DNA from: Peromyscus leucopus
Taxonomy: Eukaryota > Chordata > Mammalia > Rodentia > Cricetidae
Length of the DNA stretch: 64,000 nucleotides
Assembly (NCBI RefSeq): GCF_004664715.2
Contig: NC_051084.1
Coordinates: 64,159,334 to 64,223,333, forward strand
Reading direction: 5' to 3'
Position numbers and translations under genes: made by a program
Notes under the pieces: model-generated
What the model was told of the DNA's origin: nothing
Seen by the model: the letters and a program-made list of their open reading frames with translations, nothing else
The model's database searches: none
Shown: piece after piece, positions 13,936 through 15,202 of the stretch
How the letters are laid out: each line of letters starts with the position of its first letter
How positions within the stretch are numbered: the stretch's first letter is position 1

Positions 13936-15202
13936 TTACATGTTGCTCAGGGTCTCCACCCCAGGAAGGACTTTACCTTCCAGCAGATCGAGACTTGCCC
14001 CACCTCCAGTGCTCACATGGCTGACCTTGTTTTCAGTGTCCCATTTAGCAGAGCAAGTAGCAGTATCTCCATCCCCTATAATGGTGACACAGCCCTTGGA
14101 GGTGGCCTTTACAACTTCATTCATGAGGGCTTTTGTTCCCTTAGCAAAGGCATACCATTCAAACACCCCCATAGGTCCATTCCAAATAGTAAGCTTTGCC
14201 TCGGTCACAATTTGAGCATTGTTTTTAATGCTCTCAGGAACACAGTCCAAACTCATCCAGCCAGATGGTATGCCAGATTCTAGAGTGGCTTTTCCAACTT
14301 TTGCATGCTCATCAAACTTGTCAGCAGTTACAAAGTCAACAGGAAAGGTAACTTTTACACCATTCTTTTCTGCTTTGGCCATGTTATCTTTGACAATTTT
14401 GGCTCTCTTCTTCAAACAAGGAAGCACCAATATCCATGTTCTTGAGTTTCTTCAGGAAGGTATAAGCCATCCCACCCTCAATAATCATGAATTTGACTTT
14501 GTATAGTACTTGTCTAACATGTGTTTGATGGGTTGGATCTTGTCTTTCATTTTGACTCAACCAAGGATAGCCAGGAAGGATTTCTCTGGGTTTTCTAAGA
14601 CCTTGGCAAAGTAATCTAGTTCCTTCTTCATGAGGAACCCATATGGCTTCTGTGACAAATTTACTCCTACCATGGAAATGTGGGCCCTGTGTGGGATGCC
14701 AAAAGTATTGTTGACATAGACATCACTGAGTTTTGATAATGATGCTCTGAAGGCTTCTACTTTATTTAGCAGCTTAGTGATAATCTTTTTTCCAGCAGGA
14801 TCCTGACCCTTGCCTTCTTCCTCTACTTGGAAGCACAGTTTCTCCAAAAGGATGACAGACCCATTATCTGGGTTAGCAGGACTTTTCTCTACTTCAGAGC
14901 CCACACATCCTTCAGGAACAAAACATCCTTACCCAGCCTGGATTTGAGCTCAGCACAGTAATAGGAACTAAGGAATATTTGTCTGGCTTAGAGACACCAT
15001 CAAGCTGGCCAAGGTAACTCATGAGAACTGCAGGCTTGGCTCCCTTTTCCAGACAATGCTTGATGCTTGGGATGGCAGCCTTGATTCTCTGGTTGTTTGT
15101 GATTTGGTTGTTCTTCATGGGAATGTTAAAGTCTACTCTTCTAATGACCCTTTTCCCCTTAAGGTCTGCTTTGTCCAGAGTCAACTTACTAGAATGAGAC
15201 AT
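13936..15202 (-). pseudogene. Pgk2: Pgk2 (testis phosphoglycerate kinase) pseudogene
   Basis: An intronless, full-length copy of phosphoglycerate kinase, the ATP-forming glycolytic enzyme, from ATG at 15202 to TAA at 13936. Its variants are Pgk2-like rather than Pgk1-like: GKRVI, AAIPSIKHCL, ANPDNGS, ESIKNNAQIV and a terminal LSNM. Lesions: one base lost near 14952-14960; another near 14905-14910; GGA to TGA at 14559-14557; about 11 extra bases at 14498-14508; two bases lost near 14403-14405. Functional sites are also spoiled: SHLGRPDG reads SYLGQLDG, VIMRVDFN reads VIRRVDFN, and the nucleotide-site IIGGGDT reads IIGDGDT. It is inactive as read. In mouse and human Pgk2 neighbours the Crisp genes, so this is either the decayed ortholog or a dead duplicate. 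Confidence 0.93.

What the first reader, a model, noticed from the sequence alone, without database searches (positions are those of the whole stretch)
13936..15202. Dead Pgk2 copy at the conserved Crisp-side position
Pgk2 supplies most phosphoglycerate kinase activity in sperm and sits next to the Crisp genes in mouse and human. Here the syntenic copy has at least four frameshifts, one nonsense codon and lost active-site residues, while its upstream CCAAT box persists. Either this species lost Pgk2 or a functional copy exists in another duplicate. Both readings matter for sperm glycolysis.
Basis: partly seen in the sequence, partly recalled or inferred. Interest (0 to 1): 0.75.

Follow-up and report, generated by a model that had tools for sequence, protein, structure and literature searches.

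The report
Long-dead Pgk2 copy beside Crisp1
A deer-mouse-like genome carries a broken, long-decayed copy of the sperm glycolysis gene Pgk2 next to an apparently intact Crisp1-like gene; whether a working Pgk2 survives elsewhere in that genome could not be checked here.

Summary
Minus strand 15202..13936 reads as a full-length, intronless PGK2 relic: 341 of 417 residues identical to intact PGK2 P0122 (unnamed, groups with Lemmus), with four frame-breaking indels, an extra in-frame codon and one TGA. It is not a Pgk1 retrocopy (p-AU 7e-5). It has been dead for long: 36 of 238 columns invariant in 27 other PGKs are changed, against 0-7 when each of the 27 is left out in turn; the change load equals about 0.075-0.079 neutral substitutions per site, over ten million years by recalled rates. 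About 10 kb away lies a Crisp1-like gene with open exons, 227 of 231 scored residues identical to Peromyscus maniculatus, so the window is Peromyscus or very close. No second Pgk2 lies in the window. The upstream CCAAT is at chance level. Whether an intact Pgk2 exists elsewhere is untested: the genome search did not complete (18 tries). A dead duplicate is likelier than gene loss; loss is not excluded.

The parts
13936..15202 (-). Pgk2 pseudogene, full length, intronless, ATG to terminal stop
   Evidence: 341/417 identical to P0122 in a frameshift-aware alignment; tblastn with P0121-P0123; PDB best match mouse testis PGK2
14950..14960 (-). frameshift, net +2 nt (approximate place)
   Evidence: reading passes from frame 1 to frame 0
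14904..14912 (-). frameshift, net -1 nt (approximate place)
14557..14559 (-). nonsense codon TGA in place of the invariant Gly214 codon (P0122 numbering)
14498..14512 (-). frameshift, net +11 nt (approximate place)
14402..14407 (-). frameshift, net -2 nt (approximate place)
15351..15355 (-). CCAAT at -153 from the ATG; uninformative
   Evidence: 61% of 500-bp bins of the window hold CCAAT or ATTGG
25853..40675 (-). Crisp1-like gene with open coding exons: about 40598-40675, 39134-39250, 37925-38011, 35643-35792, 34010-34105, 28830-28919, 25853-25975
   Evidence: 227/231 scored residues identical to Peromyscus maniculatus CRISP1-like P0245 over residues 17-246 (residue 144 counted twice, and one of the four mismatches falls on a codon split between exons), no stops; residues 1-26 identical; GT/AG borders by eye

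Best explanation
This is a long-dead, non-functional Pgk2 copy in a Peromyscus genome, at or near the ancestral Crisp1-Pgk2 location, and most likely a dead duplicate: a second Pgk2 produced when the Crisp1/Pgk2 block was duplicated, free of constraint while another copy kept the sperm enzyme. Shown: Pgk2 descent, full-length intronless structure, loss of reading frame and of constraint, a Crisp1-like neighbour with open exons in the order suggested by a hamster gene model. Inferred: that a working copy exists elsewhere, that the origin was block duplication, and the age of the decay. It does nothing today as an enzyme; a role for a transcript was not tested and nothing here suggests one.
For: Pgk2 descent: of the first 15 rows found with the read-through query, 12 are named rodent PGK2 (Lemmus and Cricetulus at 81%) and 3 are unnamed. 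The tree places it with the intact cricetid PGK2s, support 82/87, below the starred level; the smallest starred set that holds it has 11 rows (96/90). Its end branch is 0.24 against 0-0.019 for the four intact cricetid rows (stem of the Cricetulus pair 0.03). Placement with five PGK1 rows rejected, p-AU 7e-5. Decay. The change rate at invariant columns (36/238, one of them the stop) is not significantly below that at variable columns (38/177, against P0122), Fisher p 0.12, odds ratio 0.65, as expected with little or no constraint; the single in-frame stop fits neutral simulation (P of 1 or fewer 0.19-0.33). Synteny: (P0124). Duplicate reading: P. maniculatus appears under five Crisp-like entries, three named CRISP1-like (P0245, P0246, P0253) and two named ShKT domain-containing protein (P0256, P0268), which suggests an expanded Crisp1 block; and mouse Pgk2 nulls are infertile with low ATP and motility (PMC11285943, passages seen), which makes total loss costly.
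Against: No working Pgk2 was seen: none in the 64 kb, and the genome was never searched. The repeated blocks in the window (0.15-7.2 kb against 46.4-56.7 kb) look like endogenous-retrovirus relics by one Gag_p10 match and do not extend over the Pgk2 copy, so the window gives no direct sign that Pgk2 itself was duplicated. Some of the five Crisp-like entries may be models of one gene; their places in that genome were not seen. The tree does not fix whether the copy split off inside cricetids, beside them (p-AU 0.33) or before the murid-cricetid split (p-AU 0.22).
Confidence: 0.7

Rival explanations
1. True loss: this is the only Pgk2 ortholog, it died early in the lineage leading to Peromyscus, and sperm use PGK1 (escaping or resuming after meiotic X silencing) or a Pgk1 retrogene.
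For: Position and strand fit the hamster Crisp-PGK2 order; no other copy in the window; a tree that holds the intact cricetid PGK2s together without it, the topology of an ortholog, is not rejected (p-AU 0.33); no row named as a neotomine or sigmodontine PGK2 is among the 120 listed hits.
Against: The missing names mean little: the same list also lacks house mouse, golden hamster and the voles other than Lemmus as named PGK2 rows, rows stand for clusters, and only 120 of 7997 were listed. Mouse Pgk2 nulls are infertile (PMC11285943, passages). The decay is so old (recalled rates) that the loss would have to be shared by many New World rodents.
Confidence: 0.22
2. A processed retrocopy of Pgk2 mRNA that happened to land by Crisp1, or an independent Pgk1 retropseudogene.
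For: Intronless and full length; rodents hold many Pgk1 retrocopies (recalled).
Against: Pgk1 origin rejected. Pgk2 is itself intronless, so lack of introns says nothing. By eye there is no poly(A) tract in the 700 bases after the stop other than the tail of a SINE. Landing by chance beside Crisp1 on the same strand as in hamster is improbable.
Confidence: 0.06
3. Assembly or sequencing error in an intact gene.
For: Reads were not available.
Against: Indel errors would not also change 36 of 238 invariant columns or give 59 differences at 384 sites where three intact cricetid PGK2s agree.
Confidence: 0.01

Closest known systems
Cricetid PGK2 (Lemmus lemmus P0121, Cricetulus griseus P0123, unnamed P0122)
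   Same: 81% identical over the full query by the search table; same intronless reading; Crisp exons upstream on the same strand in the hamster model P0124
   Different: those are intact and highly constrained; this copy has four frameshifts, a nonsense codon and 59 differences at 384 sites where those three agree
Mouse PGK2 (2p9q), the testis enzyme
   Same: best solved-structure match for both long pieces
   Different: no open frame; H62, R65, R122, G213 and G372 lost
PGK1 and its processed pseudogenes
   Same: same family (Pfam PF00162)
   Different: placement with five PGK1 rows rejected, p-AU 7e-5

Membership tests
Pgk2 lineage (testis phosphoglycerate kinase) | sequence descends from PGK2 rather than PGK1 | tested here: met
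Pgk2 lineage (testis phosphoglycerate kinase) | intronless full-length coding region | tested here: met
   one continuous stretch 15202..13936 covers residues 1-417
Pgk2 lineage (testis phosphoglycerate kinase) | location beside Crisp genes | tested here: met
   Crisp1-like gene at 25853-40675, same strand; hamster model P0124 joins Crisp exons to PGK2; the mouse and human arrangement is recalled
Functional PGK enzyme | open reading frame | tested here: not met
   four frameshifts and one TGA
Functional PGK enzyme | substrate and active-site residues kept | tested here: not met
   5 of 16 recalled positions lost
Functional PGK enzyme | purifying selection | tested here: not met
   36/238 invariant columns changed; 59 differences at 384 sites where three intact copies agree
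Gene loss (no working Pgk2 in the species) | no intact copy in the whole genome | not testable with these tools
Testis promoter of Pgk2 | conserved promoter elements | tested here: inconclusive
   CCAAT at -153 is at chance level; no relative's upstream DNA was on hand

The most novel reading that the evidence does not exclude
Deer mice and their New World relatives lost Pgk2 altogether early in their history, and their sperm run glycolysis on PGK1 or a Pgk1 retrogene, contrary to the mouse, where Pgk2 is needed for male fertility.
Probability: 0.2. Interest if true: 0.65.

Novelty: new member of a known kind. Interest (0 to 1): 0.28.

Why it matters
As a dead duplicate it is ordinary pseudogene decay in a fast-changing reproductive cluster. 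If it is the only Pgk2, it would be a natural knockout of a gene that mouse males need, in a model genus used for sperm competition, and would show how sperm glycolysis can be rewired. The age estimate makes this cheap to test in any New World cricetid genome.

Tried and rejected
Tandem Pgk2 array: the many Lemmus 'PGK2' hits looked like copies on one contig, but their sequences are deletion variants of one sequence, so this was dropped. Segmental duplication carrying Pgk2 inside the window: repeat blocks 0.15-7.2 kb and 46.4-56.7 kb stop before the Pgk2 copy and include a Gag_p10 remnant, so they are read as retroviral relics. Pgk1 retrocopy: rejected. CCAAT box as sign of a live promoter: chance level. 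Taking unnamed P0122 as the Peromyscus gene: it groups with Lemmus (97/87), so it is more likely a vole, and it says nothing on Peromyscus. P0001, the best hit of the partial-length search, is 99% identical to the beaver protein P0136. Papers: Pgk2 with Peromyscus gave 2 papers, seen as a listing only, by title not on this gene in that genus; the listings (none found; 12 of 40 listed; 10 of 514 listed) showed nothing on this locus; PMC7278046 (passages) treats CRISP duplications and does not mention Pgk2. Danshina 2010 is not held and is known here only through PMC11285943 (passages). Rfam: no match at gathering thresholds.

Full report
What is there. Bases 15202..13936 on the minus strand hold a full-length relic of phosphoglycerate kinase. 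The two longest open pieces match Pfam PF00162, and their best solved-structure match is mouse testis PGK2 ahead of PGK1, 275.5 against 264.6 bits and 164.1 against 155.6 bits. The start codon and the terminal stop remain.

Which gene. Of the first 15 rows found with a read-through query, 12 are named rodent PGK2, Lemmus and Cricetulus at 81%, and 3 are unnamed (120 of 7997 listed). In a 29-row tree the window copy lies with the intact cricetid PGK2s, support 82/87 (below the starred level; the smallest starred set holding it has 11 rows, 96/90), on an end branch of 0.24, where the four intact cricetid rows have 0 to 0.019. Holding it with five PGK1 rows costs 37.8 log units (p-AU 7e-5).

How dead, and for how long. 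Of 238 columns that do not vary in 27 other PGKs (PGK1 and PGK2 of placentals, one marsupial, one monotreme; six rows unnamed), 36 are changed here, one of them to the stop; each of the 27, left out in turn, shows 0 to 7. Changes fall on invariant columns (36/238) not significantly less than on variable ones (38/177 against P0122, which includes P0122's own changes; Fisher p 0.12). Where Lemmus, P0122 and Cricetulus agree (384 of 415 aligned codons) the window copy differs at 59. Counted the other way, at sites where the window copy and the other two agree, Lemmus, P0122 and Cricetulus differ at 6, 4 and 9. A neutral simulation started from the window's own codons needs 0.075-0.079 substitutions per site to reach that share and predicts 2.3-2.8 stops, against 1 seen (P of 1 or fewer 0.19-0.33). 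With a rodent neutral rate of about 5e-9 per site per year (recalled) this is near 15 million years, with wide error, older than the genus Peromyscus by recalled dates. So this is probably not a fresh loss in one species.

Where. The Crisp1-like gene at 25853-40675 is on the same strand, upstream of the Pgk2 copy in the direction of transcription. Its exons read open and agree with P. maniculatus CRISP1-like P0245 at 227 of 231 scored residues (one residue counted twice, one mismatch on a split codon), and residues 1-26 are identical. This makes the window Peromyscus or a very near relative (subfamily Neotominae). A Cricetulus gene model (P0124) fuses Crisp exons to an intact PGK2 downstream of them, so the arrangement seems shared with hamster. 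The mouse and human arrangement is recalled.

Duplicate or loss. No second Pgk2 lies in the window. The genome itself was never searched: the tool did not answer at any of 18 tries. For the duplicate reading: five Crisp-like entries from P. maniculatus, three named CRISP1-like and two named ShKT domain-containing, hint at an expanded block, though some may be models of one gene; and the mouse enzyme is needed for male fertility (PMC11285943, passages). For loss: position, an allowed ortholog topology, and the lack of a named neotomine or sigmodontine PGK2 among the listed hits, which is weak because house mouse and golden hamster are also unnamed there. I put the duplicate near 0.7 and loss near 0.2.

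Verdict. The CCAAT box carries no weight. As it stands this is an old pseudogene; it becomes interesting only if a genome search shows that no intact copy exists.

Noticed in passing
window 154-7474 and 46384-58939: Repeat blocks about 69-92% alike with further partial copies; one open piece (54337-54666, minus) matches retroviral Gag_p10 (E 6.7e-15), so these look like endogenous retrovirus relics on both sides of the Crisp1-Pgk2 pair.
   Followed up: partly
window 13221-13409: B1-type SINE (identified by eye, recalled consensus) about 0.5 kb past the 3' end of the Pgk2 copy, with what looks by eye like a short target-site duplication on both sides; similar copies at 28.3, 30.6, 32.7 and 59.0 kb.
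   Followed up: no
window 34358-34546: Stretch 94% identical to the last part of the short P. maniculatus CRISP1-like model P0253, lying in an intron of the window's Crisp1-like gene: probably an annotation artefact or an alternative last exon.
   Followed up: no
protein P0124 (Cricetulus griseus, 567 aa): Public gene model that fuses Crisp exons, with two signal-peptide-like stretches, to PGK2; it looks like a mis-joined annotation, useful here as evidence of adjacency.
   Followed up: partly
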